Shown: positions 41,200-53,800 of the stretch, piece after piece
How the letters are laid out: every line of letters starts with the position of its first letter
Position numbering within the stretch: position 1 is the first letter of the stretch
Assembly (NCBI RefSeq): GCF_013410215.1
Contig: NZ_JACCFQ010000001.1
Location: forward strand, 620,001 to 684,000
Direction of reading: 5' to 3'
Length of the DNA stretch: 64,000 bases
Source of the DNA: Nesterenkonia sandarakina
Lineage (GTDB): Bacteria > Actinomycetota > Actinomycetes > Actinomycetales > Micrococcaceae
Notes under the pieces: generated by a model
The model's input: the letters and a program-made list of their open reading frames with translations, nothing else
The model's database searches: none
What the model was told of the DNA's origin: nothing
Made by a program: the position numbers and the translations under genes

Positions 41200-46293
<5,094 letters not shown>

Positions 46294-46457
46294 AAATTAA
46301 TAAGAGAAAGCATCCACAACTAACAACAAACAGACCAGACCCTGCCAGAAAAACAAGGCCCTCACGATCCGTTCATCACCAGCCACAGACACCTGTTTAA
46401 TGAATCCTTGGCTAAATTTGCGATCACTACCACGGGGGTGGTAATGTCACTGTTATA

Positions 46458-46476
46458 ACCAAATAAATAATTTGGT
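46458..46476 (-). promoter_or_regulatory. Perfect inverted repeat in the rrn leader
   Basis: ACCAAA-TAAATAA-TTTGGT lies between the 16S start and the 16S processing arm. It could form a small AU-rich hairpin in the leader transcript. Role unknown. Confidence 0.5.
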
Positions 46477-46485
46477 ATCAACAAA

Positions 46486-46516
46486 CTTGGCACACTATTG
46501 AGTTCTCAAACAACAA
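46486..46516 (-). promoter_or_regulatory. Leader arm of the 16S processing stem with boxA-like sequence
   Basis: The reverse strand reads TGTTGTTTGAGAACTCAATAG, close to the antitermination/boxA leader sequence of actinobacterial rrn operons, and is complementary to 44551-44580 in the spacer. Pairing would bring the 16S ends together for RNase III cleavage. Confidence 0.75.
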
Positions 46517-46574
46517 CCGCTACCGGCACCATCAGGACTGTTGTTTTCCTGAATCGCTCCGAAGCAACTTTGTA

Positions 46575-46603
46575 AGCTTACCAACAAGCTTCCGCATCGT
46601 CAA
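46575..46603 (-). promoter_or_regulatory. rRNA operon promoter (proximal)
   Basis: TTGACG (46598-46603), a 17-base spacer and TAAGCT (46575-46580) on the reverse strand, about 280 bases before 16S. The -10 is weak by E. coli standards but resembles mycobacterial/micrococcal rrn promoters. Confidence 0.6.
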
Positions 46604-46707
46604 TTCGGTGTTTCCACCGTATTTGACTGACATGATCAGCACCACGCGGCTGCAGCGAAGATTCGCTGTCTGCCAGACCGTGCTGCTCGTCGTCTGCGCG
46701 GTTCTCA

Positions 46708-46737
46708 ACTCTACGTCGTGATCCTCGCTGGCGTCAA
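46708..46737 (-). promoter_or_regulatory. rRNA operon promoter (distal)
   Basis: TTGACG (46732-46737), an 18-base spacer and TAGAGT (46708-46713) on the reverse strand. With the proximal one this gives tandem promoters, usual for rRNA operons. The remaining upstream region to 47041 (about 300 bases) holds no gene that I can see. Confidence 0.6.
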
Positions 46738-47041
46738 CTCGAGGTCAACACCAGATGAACACCATAAAAACAGTAGAACGAGAACCCCCTGATCAGTGGT
46801 TTCCCTTCGCTGGTGTGGGGCCTGATTGGTCCGAAAACCCAGGCCGCCGCAGCGAGGAACTCACTGGTGGGGTGAAGCTATGTGGTTATCAAATCCGCTC
46901 CGAGTTCCAGCCGGTCTGCCTCTCGGCTTTCCGCTGTGCCCCGTGAGCACGAGATAGAACTTTACACACACCCCAGACCAGCGCGCAAACCAGATCCGCT
47001 GCGACCTCGGTCACACCCCTGGATCCCCGCGAGCCGGGGGT

Positions 47042-48505
47042 TCACTCGGGGTGCAACGCCAGGGAACGGCCGAATATCCATCGCCCCTCGCTGCGCTGCA
47101 CCAGCTCCAGCGCCTCGGTGAGCACCGCGGCGTGGAACAGGGTCGAGTCCAGACCCGCCTCGGCAGCGTCGCTGTGTCGGTATCCCTCCAGCAGAGCGGT
47201 GGTCACCTGCTCGCACCAGAGTTCGCCGTCCAGCTCCGACGCATCGGCCTGCGCAGATCTCGGTGTCTGTGCCGATGCCGTCGTCGATGCCGGTGTTGAT
47301 TCCGTGGTCATCCTCTGCATCGTGAGCTCCGCGATGGAGATCAGCACGGCGACCACGTCGCGAAGCGGCAGAGCGTGGTCCGACATGCCGCCCTGCTCGT
47401 CGATGATCCAGGGACCTTCGGGGCCGGTGGCCCGGATGCGCTCCAGGTTCAGTGCGCCGTGGATCTTCTGCAGGCTCATCGCCTGGTCGGTCTCGCGGAG
47501 CTGGGTGATCAGCCGGTCTACCGTCGCACCCAGCACATCGGCTTCGGATTCCTCGAGGGTCGTGTGCACCTGGGACCAGCTGTGCTCCAGCGCTGCCACG
47601 GCCTGGTCGATCGTGGTCCTGCGCTGCTGATCCGTCTGCGGATAGGCCCCGAAGGTCCCGGCCAGATCAGCGTGGAAGTTCCCGAGGGTGCGCCCGATCT
47701 GTTCAGCTTCGCTCTGGAAGTCCGATGCTTCGAGCAGCGCGGCATCCACCTGGGCCGAGGCAGCCGGGGCACCGAGAGAGGCTTCACGGATGAGCCCGAG
47801 GTCACAGGAGACCCACGGCTGTTCCGCCGCTTCGGAGTCCGCCTCGGGCCAGGTTCCGGTGACCACTCCCAGAACGCGGGAGACCGTGCGGCTGCCCGTG
47901 CGTCCCATCCGCACCACCGTGTCCAGGGCACCGGAGCGCTGCTCTGGTCTGCGGGGGAAGTCGATGATGGTGCGCTGGTCCTGCCCGGTGCCGGCCTCGA
48001 GGGTGATCGCGGTGCGAGTCATCGCTGCGGTGGGCGCCTCGAGCACCGTGCGCTGCAAGGTGGCGCTGAAGGCGGGCCAGTCGGCGAAGTCCTCGAAGGC
48101 CTGGCCGCGGGAGCGCCCATTGCGGCTGCCCTGTCCGCGGCGGACCATCTCGTGGATGGCTGCCAGGAAGGCACGATCGTGTGCGCCGTCGTAGACCCAG
48201 AGGTCTCCATCGACTCCGCGAAGGCGACCGATGAAGGCGGCCTTGCCGGCCAGCGCGGAGGGCCTGCTGCGCAGCGCCATCGGCACCGCGAGCCGCTCCT
48301 GGCCGGCGGCGTGCTCCACCAGAAAGACATGCAGCTCCAGGCGCACCCTCTGGTCGGGCTCACCCTCCGGGGCGGGAAGCCGCAGACCACCGACGCGGGT
48401 GATCACGCGGCGACCTGGTGCAGCCGTGAACCAGGACTGCTGGGACAGCCAGGTCCCCACCAGATCCAGGAACCCTGGCTGCTCCTCGCCTCGGAAGCTG
48501 CGCAT
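47042..48505 (-). CDS. Maltokinase-like protein with a degenerate kinase loop
   Basis: A 487-residue protein. The N-terminal ~110 residues fit the maltokinase N-cap (WLSQQSWFTAAPGRRVITRVGGLRL, LWVYDGAHDRAFLAAI), and the rest follows the Mak/TreS-Pep2 aminoglycoside-kinase-like fold. In active maltokinases the loop reads H-G-D-x-H-L-G-Q; here it is H349-G350-A351-L-N-L-E-R, and the D-F-E-G metal motif is D-E-Q-G. The catalytic Asp is therefore missing, suggesting a pseudokinase or diverged activity. It is the last gene of the carD-ispDF-cysS-rlmB operon and starts directly at the rlmB stop. No treS or glgE is in the window. Confidence 0.8.
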   Translation of the reverse strand: MRSFRGEEQPGFLDLVGTWLSQQSWFTAAPGRRVITRVGGLRLPAPEGEPDQRVRLELHVFLVEHAAGQERLAVPMALRSRPSALAGKAAFIGRLRGVDGDLWVYDGAHDRAFLAAIHEMVRRGQGSRNGRSRGQAFEDFADWPAFSATLQRTVLEAPTAAMTRTAITLEAGTGQDQRTIIDFPRRPEQRSGALDTVVRMGRTGSRTVSRVLGVVTGTWPEADSEAAEQPWVSCDLGLIREASLGAPAASAQVDAALLEASDFQSEAEQIGRTLGNFHADLAGTFGAYPQTDQQRRTTIDQAVAALEHSWSQVHTTLEESEADVLGATVDRLITQLRETDQAMSLQKIHGALNLERIRATGPEGPWIIDEQGGMSDHALPLRDVVAVLISIAELTMQRMTTESTPASTTASAQTPRSAQADASELDGELWCEQVTTALLEGYRHSDAAEAGLDSTLFHAAVLTEALELVQRSEGRWIFGRSLALHPE

Positions 48506-49498
48506 CTACCGCTGAGCCCCCTGGCGCCGCATCGCGATCTCGTAGAGGCTGATGCCCACCGCCATGGAGGCGTTCAGCGACTCGGTGGCCGAGGTGATCG
48601 GGATGGAGACGATCTGGTCGCAGGTCTCACGGACCAGGCGGGAGAGTCCCTTGCCTTCGGAGCCGACCACGATGATCACCGGCTCCTGGGCGAGTTCGAT
48701 GTCTTGGAGCGAGATATCGCCCCCGCCGTCGAGGCCGAGCACGAAGTATCCGAGCTGCTTCGCCTCCTTCAGCGTCTGGGTGAGGTTCTTCGCCCGCGCC
48801 ACGGGAATCCGTGCCGCGGCTCCCGCAGAGGTCTTCCAGGTCGTGGCGGTCACCCCGGCGCTGCGCCGTTCCGGGATCAGCACCCCGTGGGCGCCGAATG
48901 CGGAGGCGGCGCGCAGCATCGCGCCCAGGTTGCGCGGATCAGTGATCGAGTCGCACGCCAGGAACAGCGGCTGGTGGGCGATGTGTCCCTTGGCCGCGCG
49001 TTCCAGCTCGTCCTCGGCCAGATCCAGCGCGTCGAGGTAGTCATAGGGCTCCAGCAGCAGCGCGAGTCCCTGGTGGACCGCTCCCCCGGTGGCGTTGTCC
49101 AGGTGGCGGCGGGTGACCTCGCGGACCCGCACCCCGGCCTCGGCGGCGAACTGCAGAGCCTCGCGGACCCGACCGTCGGACTCGACGTCCGTGGCGACGT
49201 GGAGTTCCTTGGCAGGGACTCGTTCGCGCAGCGCCTCGAGCACCGAGTTGCGTCCGGCGACCATGTCCTCGGCGCCGAACCCGGAGCCGCGCTGGCGCGG
49301 TGCGTTGCTGCTGGACTTGGTGGCCGCCCGTTCGGCGAGCATCTTCTGCCGGTGCGCCTTGTGATACACCCGGTCCTCGGCCTTCGGCGTGGGGCCCTTG
49401 CCGCGCAGCGCGCGCCGCCCCTGACCGCCGGACCCGGTCTGGGGGCCCTTCTTCTCTCGTCGGATCGCGGCCGACTTGGGCCGTGAATCTCTTGCCAT
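48506..49498 (-). CDS. rlmB: 23S rRNA (guanosine-2'-O-)-methyltransferase RlmB
   Basis: A 330-residue SPOUT methyltransferase: substrate-binding domain (about 80-155, GRNSVLEALRERVPAKELHVA) and catalytic knot domain with DSITDPRNLGAMLRAASAFG, IIVVGSEGKGLSRLV and IPITSATESLNASMAVGISLYE. It methylates the 2'-O of G2251 (E. coli numbering) in 23S rRNA. The first 75 residues are a basic, disordered extension common in actinobacteria. It starts 2 bases after cysS. Confidence 0.94.
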   Translation of the reverse strand: MARDSRPKSAAIRREKKGPQTGSGGQGRRALRGKGPTPKAEDRVYHKAHRQKMLAERAATKSSSNAPRQRGSGFGAEDMVAGRNSVLEALRERVPAKELHVATDVESDGRVREALQFAAEAGVRVREVTRRHLDNATGGAVHQGLALLLEPYDYLDALDLAEDELERAAKGHIAHQPLFLACDSITDPRNLGAMLRAASAFGAHGVLIPERRSAGVTATTWKTSAGAAARIPVARAKNLTQTLKEAKQLGYFVLGLDGGGDISLQDIELAQEPVIIVVGSEGKGLSRLVRETCDQIVSIPITSATESLNASMAVGISLYEIAMRRQGAQR

Positions 49499-49500
49499 GA

Positions 49501-50991
49501 TCAGCCTTTCCTCGCCCCGGTGGCGGGGCTGGTGGTCGAACCCGTCCGGGCAAGCGCCCAGCGGGTTCCATCTTTGGAGTCTTCCAGCGCGATCCCGGCC
49601 TCGGTGAGCCGGTCGCGCAGAGCGTCGGCGCGGGCGTAGTCCTTGGCGGACTTCGCCTGCACGCGCTCATTGAGCAGCGCCTCGACCAGCTCAGCCAGAG
49701 ACTCTTCGGCCTCAGAGCTGCCCGACTCCCCGGCTTCGGGGACATCGCTGAGTCCGAGCACCCGCATCATGGTGTTCACGGCTGCCGCGCTGCGGGTCAT
49801 AGCTTCGGTGTCCCCGGCGTCGAGCGCGGTGTTGCCGGCCCGCACACTCTCATGCAGCACCGCCAGCGCCTGGGGAACGTTGAGGTCGTCGTTCATCGCC
49901 GCGGCAAACGCCTCGGGCACGGTCTGACCACCGCCCAGGTCCTGGTCTCCGAGGCTGCGCTGGGCACGCGCCAGGAAGGTCTCGACCCGTTCGACCGCTG
50001 ACTGGGCCTCCTGCAGGGAGGTGGGTCGGTAGTCCAGCTGGGAGCGGTAGTGCGCCTGCCCCAGGAAGTAGCGCACTGCGCGCGGGCGGGCCGCGGCGAG
50101 CATCTCCTCCGGTGCGATGGTGTTGCCCAGGGATTTGGACATCTTCTCTCCGGCGTAGGTGACCATCCCGTTGTGCAGCCAGAAGCGTGCGAAATCGTCG
50201 CCCGCGGCCGCGGACTGCGCCAGCTCGTTCTCGTGGTGCGGAAAGCGCAGGTCCAGGCCGCCACCATGGATGTCGAATTGGCTGCCGAGGTACTTGGTCG
50301 CCATCACGGAGCACTCCACGTGCCACCCGGGACGCCCGGCGCCCCAGGGCGCGTCCCAACGGGCGGTCACCGGGTCGCTGGACTTGTGGCCCTTCCACAG
50401 CGCGAAGTCGCGGGGATCGCGCTTGCCCCGTGCGTCGGCGTCGGCCGCGTCCTGCATGTCTTCGGCCCGCTGATGGGTCAGCTCCCCGTAGCGGGGCCAG
50501 GAGCGGACATCGAAGTACACGTCCCCGGAGCCGTCCTGGGCCGGGTAGGCATGCTCGGCGTCGATCAGCCGCTGGATCAGTGCGAACATCTCGGTCATAT
50601 GTCCGGTGGCGCGCGGCTCGTAGCGTGGGCGCTTCACTCCGAGCGCGTCGTAGGCCTGATGAAACGCCTGCTCGAAGCGGTACGCGAGGGCGAACCAGGG
50701 CTCCTGCGCCGGGTAGTCCGGGGTCGCGGCATGTTCTGGCAGGTGGGACTGGGCCGACTTCTCCAGGATCTTGTCATCGATGTCGGTGACGTTGCGGACG
50801 CTGAGCACATCGAAGCCGCTGTGTTCGAGCCAGCGGATCAGAATGTCGAAGGCCACCGCGGATCGCACGTGCCCGACGTGGGGACGCCCCTGGACGGTGG
50901 CGCCGCAGTAGTACAGGGACACCCGTCCCGGTTCCAGGGGCTCGAAATCCCGCACGGTCGCCGTCTTGGTGTCATAGAGTCGCAGTCCCAC
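49501..50991 (-). CDS. cysS: Cysteinyl-tRNA synthetase
   Basis: A 496-residue class I synthetase. The zinc Cys29 and HIGH-type motif H38-V-G-H41 ([11 protein letters not shown]) are present, as is KMSKSLGN and the WHVECSVMA zinc/Cys site block. It charges tRNA-Cys. The final [13 protein letters not shown] tail is species-specific. It starts 4 bases after ispDF. Distinguished from MshC by the KMSKSLGN context and length of about 496. Confidence 0.95.
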
Positions 50992-50995
50992 GCGC

Positions 50996-52447
50996 TCAGC
51001 CTATCCGGTCCTCGGTTCGCAGCGTGTAGACCACAGCGGTGGCGGTGGCCAGGATGCCCTCGCCGCGCCCGGTGAAGCCCAGTCCGTCCGAGGTCGTGGC
51101 GCTGATCGCGACCGGCGCTCCTGCCGCGGCGCTGAGCACCTGCTGCGCCTCAGCTCGGCGCGGGCCGAACTTGGGGCGCTGCCCCACGAACTGCACCGCG
51201 ATCGAGCCGATGCCGAAGCCCTCCCGGGCCAGGATGCGCGCGGCCTCGGCCAGCAGCTGCGCCCCCGAGGCGCCTTCGAGCTCCGGGCGGGCGGTGCCGA
51301 TGGTGTCTGCCCCGAAGTGCACGCCCAGATCGCCCAGCCCAGCGGCACTGAACAGCGCGTCGCAGCAGGCGTGGGCCACGGCGTCGCCGTCGGAGTGTCC
51401 GGTCAGTCCCTGCTGGCCCGGCCAGTACAGCCCCGCCAGCCAGAGGTCCCTCGGCTGGTCCTCCGGGGCGAAGCCATGGACGTCGTGCCCGATCCCCACC
51501 CGCGGGAGCACCGGCTGGGCTGCGGCGCCGGTGGTCTGGATCAGCGACTCGGCCGCCGCGAGATCGGAAGGGCCGGTGATCTTCACGGCCTGCTCGGAAC
51601 CAGGCACCACAGCGACCTCGACTCCCATGGCTTCAGCGATCATGGCCTCATCGGTCAGCGTCTCCGCCTGGGCGTCCGGGAGGTCTCCGATGAAGTCGAA
51701 GGCCCGCTGCAGCAGCTGAAGGGTGAAGCCCTGCGGGGTCTGCACCGCGCGCAGCTCGGACCTCGGCACCGTCTCGAGGACCGTCTCCGCACCGGTGGCC
51801 GCGCCAGGCTCGGTGTGCACCCGCTTGATGGTGTCGGTGACCCGCAGAGCCGGGACGACGGCGGGGGCGCCTGCCTCCACGGCGGCGAACACCGTCTCGT
51901 AGACGCCCGGTGGGGTCATCGCCCGGGCGGCGTCCTGGATCAGCACCGAGGTGGACGCGGGATCCCACGTGCCTGCTGCCGCGCGCAGCAGCTCATGGAC
52001 TCCGGCGCGCACCGAGGAGGATCTGCTGGCGCCGCCCCGGGTGAGGTGGACAGGGACCCCCGTGGCGGTGCGGAACTGCTCCCCCACGGCGGTGAGCGTC
52101 TCGACGCTGCTCTTATCCGCAGGCAGCACGAGCACCACGGCGTCCAGGCCCGGAGCCTCTGGGTCTGGAGTCCCCGGGCCTGGAGCCGCCCCGCCTGGGT
52201 TCATGGGGCCCTGGGTGAGCTCCTGGATGCGCTGCATCACATGGGCGAGAATCGGGCGTCCCGCCAGTTCCACGCAGGCTTTCGGTATGCCGCGGCCAAG
52301 CCGCTCTCCGCTGCCGGCGGCCACAACGATGATCGCCCGGCGCGCTGTGACAGGTGTCCCTGTCCCGGCGTCCGGGCGATTCATCGACGAGGCTCCCTGA
52401 GGAGCTTCCCTGGCTGCCGGTGCGACCTGTGGTCCCACCTGGCTCAT
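50996..52447 (-). CDS. ispDF: Bifunctional IspD-IspF enzyme
   Basis: A 483-residue fusion. The N-terminal IspD domain (about 35-310) has the nucleotide loop [17 protein letters not shown] and makes CDP-methylerythritol; the C-terminal IspF domain (about 322-480) has the metal site [17 protein letters not shown] and [10 protein letters not shown] and forms the cyclic diphosphate. Both act in the non-mevalonate isoprenoid pathway; IspE is elsewhere. ATG 52447 is 2 bases after the carD stop; ATG 52384 has a better GGGAG site and would drop a non-conserved 21-residue leader. A Pro/Gly-rich insert (about 95-112) is from GGAGCC/GGGTCT repeats. Confidence 0.94.
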
Positions 52448-52449
52448 AT

Positions 52450-52968
52450 CTACTCGGCGACCTTCTCGGGCTCTGCAGCCGTCGGGGCCTGATCGAGGAT
52501 CTCGTCGAGGAGCTTTGCGGCGTCCTCCTCGTCGAGCTTCTTCGCCAGCGCCAGCTCCGAGACCAGGATCTGCCGGGCCTTGGCCAGCATGCGCTTCTCC
52601 CCGGCGGAGAGACCGCGATCATTCTCGCGCCGCCACAGGTCACGCACGACTTCGGCCACCTTGTTCACATCGCCGGAGGCGAGCTTCTCAAGGTTGGCCT
52701 TGTACCGGCGCGACCAGTTGGTGGGCTCCTCGGTGTACTCGGCACGCAGCACGTCGAAGACATGCTCCAGACCTTCTGCACCGACGACATCACGCACACC
52801 GACCAGGTCCACGTTGTCTGCTGGCACCTCGATGGTCAGGTCACCCTGGGAGACCCTGAGCTTGAGGTACATCTTTTCCTCGCCGCGAATGGTGCGGGTC
52901 TTCACTTCTTCAATCGTCGCCGCACCGTGGTGTGGGTATACGACCGTCTCGCCGACCTCAAAATTCAT
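52450..52968 (-). CDS. carD: RNA polymerase-binding regulator CarD
   Basis: A 172-residue protein with the N-terminal RID ([22 protein letters not shown]) and the nearly invariant C-terminal block [35 protein letters not shown], including the Trp that wedges the promoter bubble. CarD stabilises open complexes, notably at rRNA promoters. ATG 52968 gives the canonical N-terminus; an earlier frame adds 12 non-conserved residues. It heads the tight ispDF-cysS-rlmB-mak-like operon. Confidence 0.96.
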
Positions 52969-53239
52969 GTAATGATTCCCCTTTCCCGACCTCAAGTTTA
53001 TCACGCGTCACAATCGGCTCCGCGTGTCGCACCGGGGCGCCTGCGCCGTCACCACATAGGGTTCGCCGCCATCTGATTTCGACATCCTGTAGAATTGTGC
53101 TCAGTTCAGACCGGCACGAAGGCGAGGATTTCCGCGCTGACGTGGACGACATCTGCGACGCACACTGATCTCCGGGCACCGACACCGCGTACCCTGGAGC
53201 TGATCTGCATCGCCCCAAGCCCGTGAGGAGACTCTCCCC

Positions 53240-53800
53240 GTGAAGTTCTCAGCCGATAAGACCCGCCGCCTGGCAGCGGTCTCTGTGGCAGCTGCCGCGC
53301 TCCTGGGCGCCAGCGGCTGCAGCGCCGTCAACTACCAGGCCACCACTCAGCAGTACGCCGCCTCCGACGGCACCCGCGCCGACGTCGAAAACGTGCAGTT
53401 CCGCCACATGGCCTTCGTCACCGACGAGGCCGGCAACCCTGCCCGGGCGATGGGCTCGATCATCAACAGCGGCGCCGAGGACGTCGAGGTGGAGCTCGAC
53501 GTCGACGGCGAGAGCTTCTCCGCGACGCTTCCGGCCGGCGAGAAGGTCTCCCTGGAGCTCGACGAGGAGCTCGTCGTGGAGTCCTTCCAGGGCGATCCCG
53601 GCGAGATGCATGAGATCACCGTCAGCGTGGACGGCGAGTCCGAGCAGATCATGGCTTCGGTCTTCGACGGGGTCCTCCCGGAGTACCGGCACCTGCTCCC
53701 CAACGGCTTCGACGAGTCCATGGCAGAGCACCTCGTGCATGGTCCCGACACCTGGGGCAGCGGCGCAGCGCACCACGATCCAGACGACGAGGGCCACTGA
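53240..53800 (+). CDS. Putative lipoprotein of unknown function
   Basis: A 186-residue secreted protein. A signal peptide with lipobox L-G-A-S-G-C27 ends near residue 27. The mature part is acidic with an Ig-like/beta-rich region (VENVQFRHMAFVTDEAGNPARAMGSIINSGAEDVEVELDVDG) and a His/Asp-rich C-terminus (HHDPDDEGH) that could bind metal. Reminiscent of LpqE/PCuAC-type lipoproteins, but the copper-site residues are not clearly conserved. GTG start with GAGGAG upstream. It is divergent from carD. Confidence 0.8.
   Translation: MKFSADKTRRLAAVSVAAAALLGASGCSAVNYQATTQQYAASDGTRADVENVQFRHMAFVTDEAGNPARAMGSIINSGAEDVEVELDVDGESFSATLPAGEKVSLELDEELVVESFQGDPGEMHEITVSVDGESEQIMASVFDGVLPEYRHLLPNGFDESMAEHLVHGPDTWGSGAAHHDPDDEGH

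What the first reader, a model, noticed from the sequence alone, without database searches (positions are those of the whole stretch)
47042..48505. Maltokinase-like protein that has lost its catalytic Asp
The loop expected as H-G-D-x-H-L-G-Q reads H-G-A-L-N-L-E-R (residues 349-356), and D-F-E-G reads D-E-Q-G. The N-cap and overall length are kept and the gene sits in a core operon with carD, ispDF, cysS and rlmB. A conserved pseudokinase in this position would be a regulator or scaffold, not a maltose kinase.
Basis: partly seen in the sequence, partly recalled or inferred. Interest (0 to 1): 0.55.

Follow-up and report, generated by a model that had tools for sequence, protein, structure and literature searches.

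The report
Genus-wide pseudo-maltokinase, relic of GlgE cluster
A sugar-kinase-like protein kept by every Nesterenkonia genome examined has lost the parts needed to work as a kinase, appears to be the leftover piece of a larger glycogen-making gene cluster, and now seems to be kept for another, probably protein- or RNA-binding, role.

Summary
In detail: the minus-strand gene at 47042-48505 (487 aa) reads HGALNLER where maltokinase (Mak) has HGDxHLGQ. The Asp is the least telling loss: 12 of 27 intact-frame Nesterenkonia orthologues keep it. All 27 have lost the ATP-phosphate Lys (now D/E), the catalytic-loop His and the maltose-site Lys and Tyr; the Mg-binding Asp is Glu in 26 of 27. The gene is in 30 of 30 genomes of the genus; GlgE is found in 0 of 30 and a second Mak cap in 0 of 30. 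Synteny gives the origin: in 15 of 24 loci fetched from other Micrococcaceae genera, rlmB is followed by glgX-(phosphorylase)-glgE-treS-mak::glgB; in 25 of 25 Nesterenkonia loci only a Mak-like half follows rlmB. Conservation has moved from the active site to residues 1-160, whose second part turned basic, and selection is purifying. Best reading: a maltokinase-derived pseudokinase taken over as a non-catalytic binding protein, partner unknown. The rlmB neighbourhood is inherited and says little about function.

The parts
47042..48505 (-). pseudo-maltokinase gene (psMak), 487 aa
   Evidence: ORF and translation; Mak_N_cap; AF2 model matches maltokinase structures, Z 27; 30 of 30 genomes of the genus
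48176..48451 (-). Mak N-terminal cap domain (residues 19-110), in the most conserved part within the genus
   Evidence: Pfam PF18085; pairwise identity in residues 1-110 0.66 in psMak against 0.41 in Mak::GlgB
48098..48175 (-). residues 111-136, genus-conserved segment ending RRGQGSRNGRSRGQA; part of the basic stretch 111-160
   Evidence: R122, R123, G126, R128, G130, R131 invariant and N129 nearly so in 25 aligned sequences; R128 and N129 absent from the 12 Mak::GlgB compared; net charge of 111-160 +3.7 against -1.5
47960..47962 (-). D182, at the site of the ATP-phosphate-binding Lys
   Evidence: D 23, E 4 of 27 psMak; K in 12 of 12 Mak::GlgB; the genus profile aligns it on the Lys of the AMLKV motif of 4u94
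47438..47461 (-). catalytic-loop position, HGALNLER (residues 349-356)
   Evidence: position 351 is D in 12 of 27, otherwise A, Q, G, E, R, N or S
47390..47398 (-). DFE-motif position, reads E-Q-G (residues 370-372)
   Evidence: E370 in 26 of 27; D in 12 of 12 Mak::GlgB
47105..47116 (-). position of the maltose-site Lys and Tyr (residues 464-467); three further residues just after it are deleted
   Evidence: K464 in 0 of 27 (E 24), Y467 in 0 of 27; K and Y in 12 of 12 Mak::GlgB
48506..49498 (-). rlmB, ends directly before psMak (0 bp between stop and ATG)
   Evidence: TIGR00186; junction read
49501..50991 (-). cysS
   Evidence: TIGR00435
50996..52447 (-). ispDF
   Evidence: PRK09382, TIGR00453 and TIGR00151 matches
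52450..53004 (-). carD
   Evidence: Pfam CarD_C and CarD_TRCF_RID
44768..46292 (-). 16S rRNA, downstream border of the locus
   Evidence: Rfam RF00177

Best explanation
psMak is the Mak-like half of an ancestral Mak::GlgB fusion, left between rlmB and the rRNA operon when the ancestor of Nesterenkonia lost glgX, the phosphorylase gene, glgE, treS and the GlgB half. It folds like a maltokinase but should not transfer phosphate the way maltokinases do: the ATP-binding Lys is replaced by an acid, the P-loop and maltose site are gone and the Mg-binding Asp is Glu. It is kept for a non-catalytic role, most likely binding a protein or RNA partner through the conserved N-cap and the newly basic segment after it, and is probably made together with RlmB. 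Shown by sequence: the losses, the genus-wide retention, the synteny, the shift of conservation and the purifying selection. Inferred: that deletion from a Mak::GlgB cluster is the ancestral event, that no phosphotransfer remains, that residues 1-160 are the working surface, and co-translation with rlmB. Not known: the partner.
For: Fold: a profile of 25 of the 27 orthologues finds PDB maltokinases (4u94, E 1.9e-10); the AF2 model (best of five, pLDDT 82.1, pTM 0.82) matches 4u94 at Foldseek E 5.2e-19, TM 0.58 and 5jy7/4u94 at Z 27.4/27.2. Losses: K182 to D/E in 27 of 27; P-loop EQSN lost (N161 kept in 3 of 27); H353 0 of 27; DFE Asp to Glu 26 of 27; K464 and Y467 0 of 27; 26 of 68 residues invariant in 12 Mak::GlgB are absent from at least 25 of 27 psMak. 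These residues matter in real Mak: mutants of the Mg Asp and the P-loop Asn were inactive, maltose-site Lys/Tyr mutants nearly so (PMC4306142 passages). Fold-holding H278 and D383 are kept in 27 of 27. Context: GlgE 0 of 30, one Mak_N_cap per genome in 30 of 30. Synteny. Conservation shift: residues 345-392 0.51 in psMak against 0.73 in Mak::GlgB; residues 1-110 0.66 against 0.41; 111-160 0.63 against 0.35. Net charge of residues 111-160 +3.7 against -1.5. dN/dS 0.07-0.41 in the 25 closest of 210 pairs.
Against: psMak evolves faster than its neighbours (dN/dS 0.02-0.08 for rlmB and 0.06-0.15 for cysS in the same pairs), and 3 of 30 genomes, all drafts in many contigs, have a broken frame, so constraint is moderate. 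One orthologue (L015) still reads HGDLSLGQ. The tree does not place psMak among the Mak::GlgB domains (long branch); origin rests on synteny. Three of the five AF2 models were poor (pLDDT 62-71). The N-cap itself is about neutral (mean -0.6 for residues 14-110), only less acidic than in Mak::GlgB. Nothing here measures activity, expression or binding.
Confidence: 0.68

Rival explanations
1. A slowly decaying relic without function, carried along because it lies directly behind rlmB.
For: Broken frame in 3 of 30 genomes; faster evolution than rlmB and cysS; the window's own lineage has a long branch and dN/dS 0.34-0.41 against its four closest relatives.
Against: Present in 30 of 30 genomes; intact frame in 27 of 30; dN/dS below 0.42 in the 25 closest pairs; 122 positions near-invariant in the genus, 27 of them with a residue that the 12 compared Mak::GlgB do not have there, or 22 if columns with more than 3 gaps in Mak::GlgB are left out. 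A decaying gene should not gain new invariant residues. At least three loci of other genera carry no such gene behind rlmB at all (L167, L169, L172).
Confidence: 0.15
2. An enzyme with changed chemistry or substrate (another phosphotransfer, or nucleotidyl or aminoacyl transfer) using the remodelled cleft.
For: Some cleft positions are invariant or nearly so in the genus: R164, D/E182, H278, D280, H349, G350, E370, D383.
Against: Position 351 drifts freely (at least 7 changes between D and other residues on the tree), and residues 345-392 are less conserved than in Mak::GlgB; no Lys at the ATP site in any of 27 sequences.
Confidence: 0.1
3. A still active kinase of the maltokinase or glucosamine-kinase kind, at least in the orthologues that keep HGD.
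For: 12 of 27 keep Asp351; L015 reads HGDLSLGQ.
Against: All 27, these 12 included, lack the Lys, His353, Lys464 and Tyr467; the window protein has no match to NCBIfam GlcN_kinase at E up to 1, whereas an intact-motif Mak::GlgB has one below the cut-off; no GlgE match to use maltose 1-phosphate.
Confidence: 0.04

Closest known systems
Maltokinase Mak/Pep2 (PDB 4u94, 4o7o, 5jy7)
   Same: N-cap plus bilobal kinase fold (predicted), similar length, conserved structural His and Asp
   Different: P-loop, ATP Lys, catalytic-loop His and maltose-site Lys/Tyr lost; Mg Asp is Glu; catalytic Asp variable; no GlgE match and no TreS over its cut-off in the genus
Mak::GlgB fusion of Micrococcaceae (NCBIfam PRK14705)
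   Same: behind rlmB and, where seen, before 16S rRNA; same first half; best NCBIfam match of psMak
   Different: psMak lacks the GlgB half, and glgX, glgE and treS are not beside it; active-site residues lost
Bacterial spore kinase (CotI/YtaA family) pseudokinases
   Same: small-molecule-kinase-like fold with repeated loss of catalytic residues while the structural His and Asp stay (PMC2860764 passages); YtaA 2q83 is the best non-Mak, non-glucosamine-kinase match of the model, Z 15.4
   Different: different subfamily and organisms; spore proteins; a Mak-type cap was not described in the passages seen
CG0192-related N-cap-only proteins (NCBIfam NF047744)
   Same: a Mak N-cap without a working kinase
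   Different: 223 aa in the one example read (L107:5971-6642); psMak scores 46.5 bits against a cut-off of 165

Membership tests
Maltokinase (Mak/Pep2, EC 2.7.1.175) | Mak N-terminal cap domain | tested here: met
   PF18085 55.4 bits, cut-off 22
Maltokinase (Mak/Pep2, EC 2.7.1.175) | overall maltokinase fold | tested here: met
   AF2 model, Z 27.4 and 27.2 to 5jy7_I and 4u94, 401 and 414 residues aligned, rmsd 5.8 and 5.5; a predicted, not a solved, structure
Maltokinase (Mak/Pep2, EC 2.7.1.175) | P-loop EQSNTS and ATP-phosphate Lys | tested here: not met
   window reads PTAAMT at 158-163; Lys replaced by D/E in 27 of 27
Maltokinase (Mak/Pep2, EC 2.7.1.175) | catalytic HGD Asp and Mg-binding DFE Asp | tested here: not met
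   A351 and E370 in the window; D351 in 12 of 27 and E370 in 26 of 27 orthologues
Maltokinase (Mak/Pep2, EC 2.7.1.175) | maltose-site Lys and Tyr in the C-terminal segment | tested here: not met
   K464 and Y467 absent in 27 of 27, three residues deleted nearby
Maltokinase (Mak/Pep2, EC 2.7.1.175) | GlgE and TreS in the same genome | tested here: not met
   GlgE N-S domain 0 of 30; TreS_nterm over cut-off 0 of 30, though 28 of 30 have weaker GH13 matches; 26 of the 30 genomes are at least 90% complete
Mak::GlgB fusion (PRK14705) | GlgB half present | tested here: not met
   487 aa ORF, match 87.4 bits against cut-off 2376, profile 7-446 of 1224 only; GlgB in 3 of 30 genomes and not in this one
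Mak::GlgB fusion (PRK14705) | position between rlmB and the rRNA operon | tested here: met
Pseudokinase | kinase fold with catalytic residues lost and structural residues kept | tested here: met
Pseudokinase | no phosphotransfer activity | not testable with these tools
   needs an assay
Glucosamine kinase (NF041273) | match to the family model | tested here: not met
   not among families at E up to 1
CG0192-related protein (NF047744) | score over the curated cut-off | tested here: not met
   46.5 bits, cut-off 165

The most novel reading that the evidence does not exclude
After the GlgE pathway was lost, a fragment of its kinase became a housekeeping regulator of Nesterenkonia: translated with the 23S rRNA methyltransferase RlmB next to the rRNA operon, its first 160 residues rebuilt into a surface with a basic stretch that binds RNA, the ribosome or a central enzyme, with an Arg164-Asp182 cross-strand pair plugging the old ATP site.
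Probability: 0.15. Interest if true: 0.75.

Novelty: new variant of a known kind. Interest (0 to 1): 0.5.

Why it matters
It offers a case, documented by synteny, of how a pseudokinase can arise in bacteria: by losing the rest of its pathway and half of its own fusion protein and then being kept across a genus. The before state (intact-motif clusters in related genera), the after state and a no-gene state can all be compared, and one deletion strain would show whether the leftover is useful. It also warns that a conserved operon neighbour can be there for historical reasons only, and that these genes should not be named maltokinase or branching enzyme.

Tried and rejected
Sequencing error at Ala351: rejected, two relatives share the Ala and other losses are in all 27. 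Second intact mak elsewhere in the genome: no second Mak cap. A role as partner of TreS: TreS_nterm over cut-off is in 0 of 30 genomes; a full-length weaker match (506-535 bits, cut-off 678) is in 21 of 30 and was not found in G009, G013, G023 and G026 (97-99% complete), which have psMak, so psMak does not seem to depend on it. Whether that weaker match is a TreS was not settled. psMak outside the genus: none seen among 297 genomes of the order (the two Nesterenkonia score 808 and 695 bits, the next is Mak::GlgB at 220), nor in the genome-contig collection by two peptide patterns (best 80 of 88 confirmed stretches kept, 78 loci; 24 are Nesterenkonia or Garicola, the next is Arthrobacter at 29-30% identity); both searches can miss divergent copies. 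Placing psMak on the tree among Mak domains: not resolved; the split between psMak and all other Mak has support 100 and length 1.41, and the four Mak domains from outside the family (L064, L068, L081, L099) fall inside the Micrococcaceae ones. Median dN/dS over wider pairs (0.36) is near saturation and not used. My first wording that the N-cap itself turned basic was dropped: the basic part is 111-160, the cap is near neutral. Literature, held library only: no paper with maltokinase and pseudokinase, none with Nesterenkonia and maltokinase. Listings only were seen for maltokinase with Arthrobacter (5 papers), GlgE with Micrococcaceae (1), Nesterenkonia with trehalose and glycogen (9); of the 3 papers with pseudokinase and aminoglycoside phosphotransferase and the 26 with maltokinase, GlgE and structure, passages were read of PMC2860764, PMC4306142, PMC6509496 and PMC11046441, and of PMC6520443. 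The cg0192 search returned methylation-probe names in the 8 of 20 papers listed.

Full report
What is there. The gene is on the minus strand, ATG at 48505, TGA ending at 47042, 487 aa. It begins directly after the rlmB stop codon. Upstream on the same strand are cysS, ispDF and carD; downstream lie the 16S, 23S and 5S rRNA genes. Only the N-cap is seen by Pfam (Mak_N_cap); the Pfam APH kinase model, which finds a Micrococcaceae Mak domain, finds neither the window protein nor the two relatives tested. The fold is nonetheless that of maltokinase: a profile of 25 of the 27 usable genus sequences finds PDB maltokinases, while the single window sequence finds none. A model made with 23 sequences (best of five, pLDDT 82.1; the others 81.0, 71.2, 66.3 and 62.3) matches maltokinases best (Foldseek E 5.2e-19, TM 0.58; Z 27.4 and 27.2, then 23.6 for a third maltokinase, 22-23 for glucosamine kinase and 15.4 or less for the rest listed).

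The genus and the distribution. Record titles of the 24 nearest loci name Nesterenkonia, and once Garicola koreensis. All 30 genomes of the genus held have the gene, each with exactly one Mak cap; 26 of the 30 are at least 90% complete. Three of the 30 have it in broken frames (G001, G021, G027). These three were left out of the alignment, as was a second copy of the window's own locus (L002), leaving 27 rows. Among 297 genomes drawn from the order, the two Nesterenkonia score 808 and 695 bits and the next is a Mak::GlgB fusion at 220. Outside the genus the best matches in the family are Mak::GlgB fusions of about 1200-1500 aa.

What was lost. Reference residues are from the M. vanbaalenii and M. 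tuberculosis Mak work, read as passages of PMC4306142, and the Mg ligands Gln310 and Asp322 from a passage of PMC11046441. Aligned with 12 Mak::GlgB domains (13 minus one partial, L162), the ATP-phosphate Lys is D (23) or E (4) in 27 of 27, the P-loop EQSN is gone (Asn kept in 3), the catalytic-loop His353 is never His, the Mg-binding Asp is Glu in 26 of 27, and the maltose-site Lys and Tyr are never kept. Catalytic Asp351 is D in 12, A 3, Q 3, G 3, E 2, R 2, N 1, S 1, with at least 7 changes between D and other residues on the tree, or 8 losses if never regained. The Mg-ligand Gln356 is kept in 5 of 27, and one orthologue, L015, reads HGDLSLGQ. The spread suggests that the Asp went late and repeatedly, after the losses shared by all (inference). 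Kept are residues that hold the fold together: H278, H349 and D383 in 27 of 27. The same pattern, catalytic residues lost while a structural His and Asp stay, is described for bacterial spore kinase pseudokinases (PMC2860764, passages).

Where it came from. Twelve loci of other genera were fetched because their genomes have a match, and 12 more, 9 of them from genomes without a match (part); this is not a random sample. Of these 24, 15 have rlmB-glgX-(phosphorylase, opposite strand)-glgE-treS-mak::glgB in that order, with cysS before rlmB in 14 (the fetch of L176 ends before it), and in 6 of the 15 the 16S gene is seen next, while the others end before it; 1 (L170) was cut before mak; 3 have glgE and glgB but no treS or mak in the stretch fetched (L168, L171, L173; L168 has no glgX either); 3 show none of these genes and 16S after rlmB (L167, L169 and, 3.9 kb on, L172); 2 have rlmB within about 330 bases of the contig end (L165, L166). 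Gene names on L153 were checked against NCBIfam and, for glgE, Pfam (GlgE_dom_N_S and GLGE_C, also on L171 and L173); the other loci were named by similarity to L153. In Nesterenkonia 25 of 25 loci (window plus 24) read ispDF-cysS-rlmB-psMak; 16S, whole or in part, follows in 10 and the contig ends 207-768 bp on in the other 15. The gap from rlmB stop to psMak start, estimated from the alignment, is -4 to 5 bp in 17 of 25. GlgE is found in 0 of 30 genomes, while Corynebacterium glutamicum rings among the 14 controls; GlgB is in 3 of 30, in G029 in a separate glgX-glgB-phosphorylase group away from rlmB. The simplest history is loss of everything between rlmB and the Mak half, and of the GlgB half. 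The tree separates psMak from all other Mak domains with support 100 but does not show which Mak is closest.

Is it kept for something? In the 25 closest of 210 pairs, dN/dS of psMak is 0.069-0.413, against 0.021-0.077 for rlmB and 0.057-0.151 for cysS: constrained, but loosely, and the pairs are not independent. More telling is where the constraint sits. Within Mak::GlgB the catalytic region (345-392) is best conserved (0.73 pairwise identity), residues 1-110 stand at 0.41 and 111-160 at 0.35; within psMak these are 0.51, 0.66 and 0.63. One set is a single genus and the other many genera (overall 0.55 and 0.46), so the ratios rather than the values count. Of 122 positions near-invariant in psMak, 27 carry a residue that none of the 12 Mak::GlgB has there, 14 of them in residues 1-160; leaving out five positions where most Mak::GlgB rows have gaps, these are 22 and 9. 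Mean net charge of residues 1-160 is +3.2 (range -1 to +10) against -6.7 (-11 to -2), and of 236-482 -21.0 against -12.8. The basic part is 111-160 (+3.7 against -1.5); residues 14-110 are about neutral (-0.6 against -4.9). Residues 164 (Arg in 27 of 27) and 182 (Asp/Glu in 27 of 27) face each other across the hairpin of strands 162-169 and 177-184 of the model if the turn is regular (inference), so a salt bridge may fill the former ATP site.

Conclusion. The finding holds in substance: by sequence this is a conserved pseudokinase. Its headline residue is the weakest evidence, and its operon context has a historical cause. A non-catalytic binding role through residues 1-160 is the most likely function; decay without function is the main rival. 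The partner is open.

Noticed in passing
L168, L171, L173: Three Micrococcaceae loci keep glgE and glgB behind rlmB but show no treS and no mak in the stretch fetched; maltose 1-phosphate would have to come from another route or from genes elsewhere.
   Followed up: partly
L107:5971-6642: A Streptomyces protein of 223 aa with a Mak N-cap and no kinase domain match (CG0192-related). What these cap proteins do is unknown to me.
   Followed up: partly
L032, L033, L034, L036: Some Mak::GlgB fusions read HADYHLGQ (L032-L034) or HSDYHLGQ (L036) instead of HGD in the catalytic loop, with the other motifs kept.
   Followed up: no
L194:3439-5073 (G000:C1:258938-260572): A full-length TreS-like GH13 enzyme below the TreS cut-off (530 bits, cut-off 678) in the window's genome and 20 other genomes of the genus; true activity unclear.
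   Followed up: partly
L180 (G029:C1:933000-945000): One Nesterenkonia has a separate glycogen gene group with glgX, standalone glgB and a phosphorylase of the TIGR02093 type, away from rlmB.
   Followed up: partly
window 46293-47041: About 750 bp between psMak and 16S rRNA hold one promoter-like site (46737-46708, minus strand) and one terminator-like site (46361-46337); in 46200-53300 promoter-like sites were 2 against 0.5 expected and terminator-like 1 against 2.2.
   Followed up: no
L027, L028, L030 (also L055, L059, L062): Three Nesterenkonia drafts have psMak in two pieces in different frames; assembly error and true loss cannot be told apart here.
   Followed up: partly
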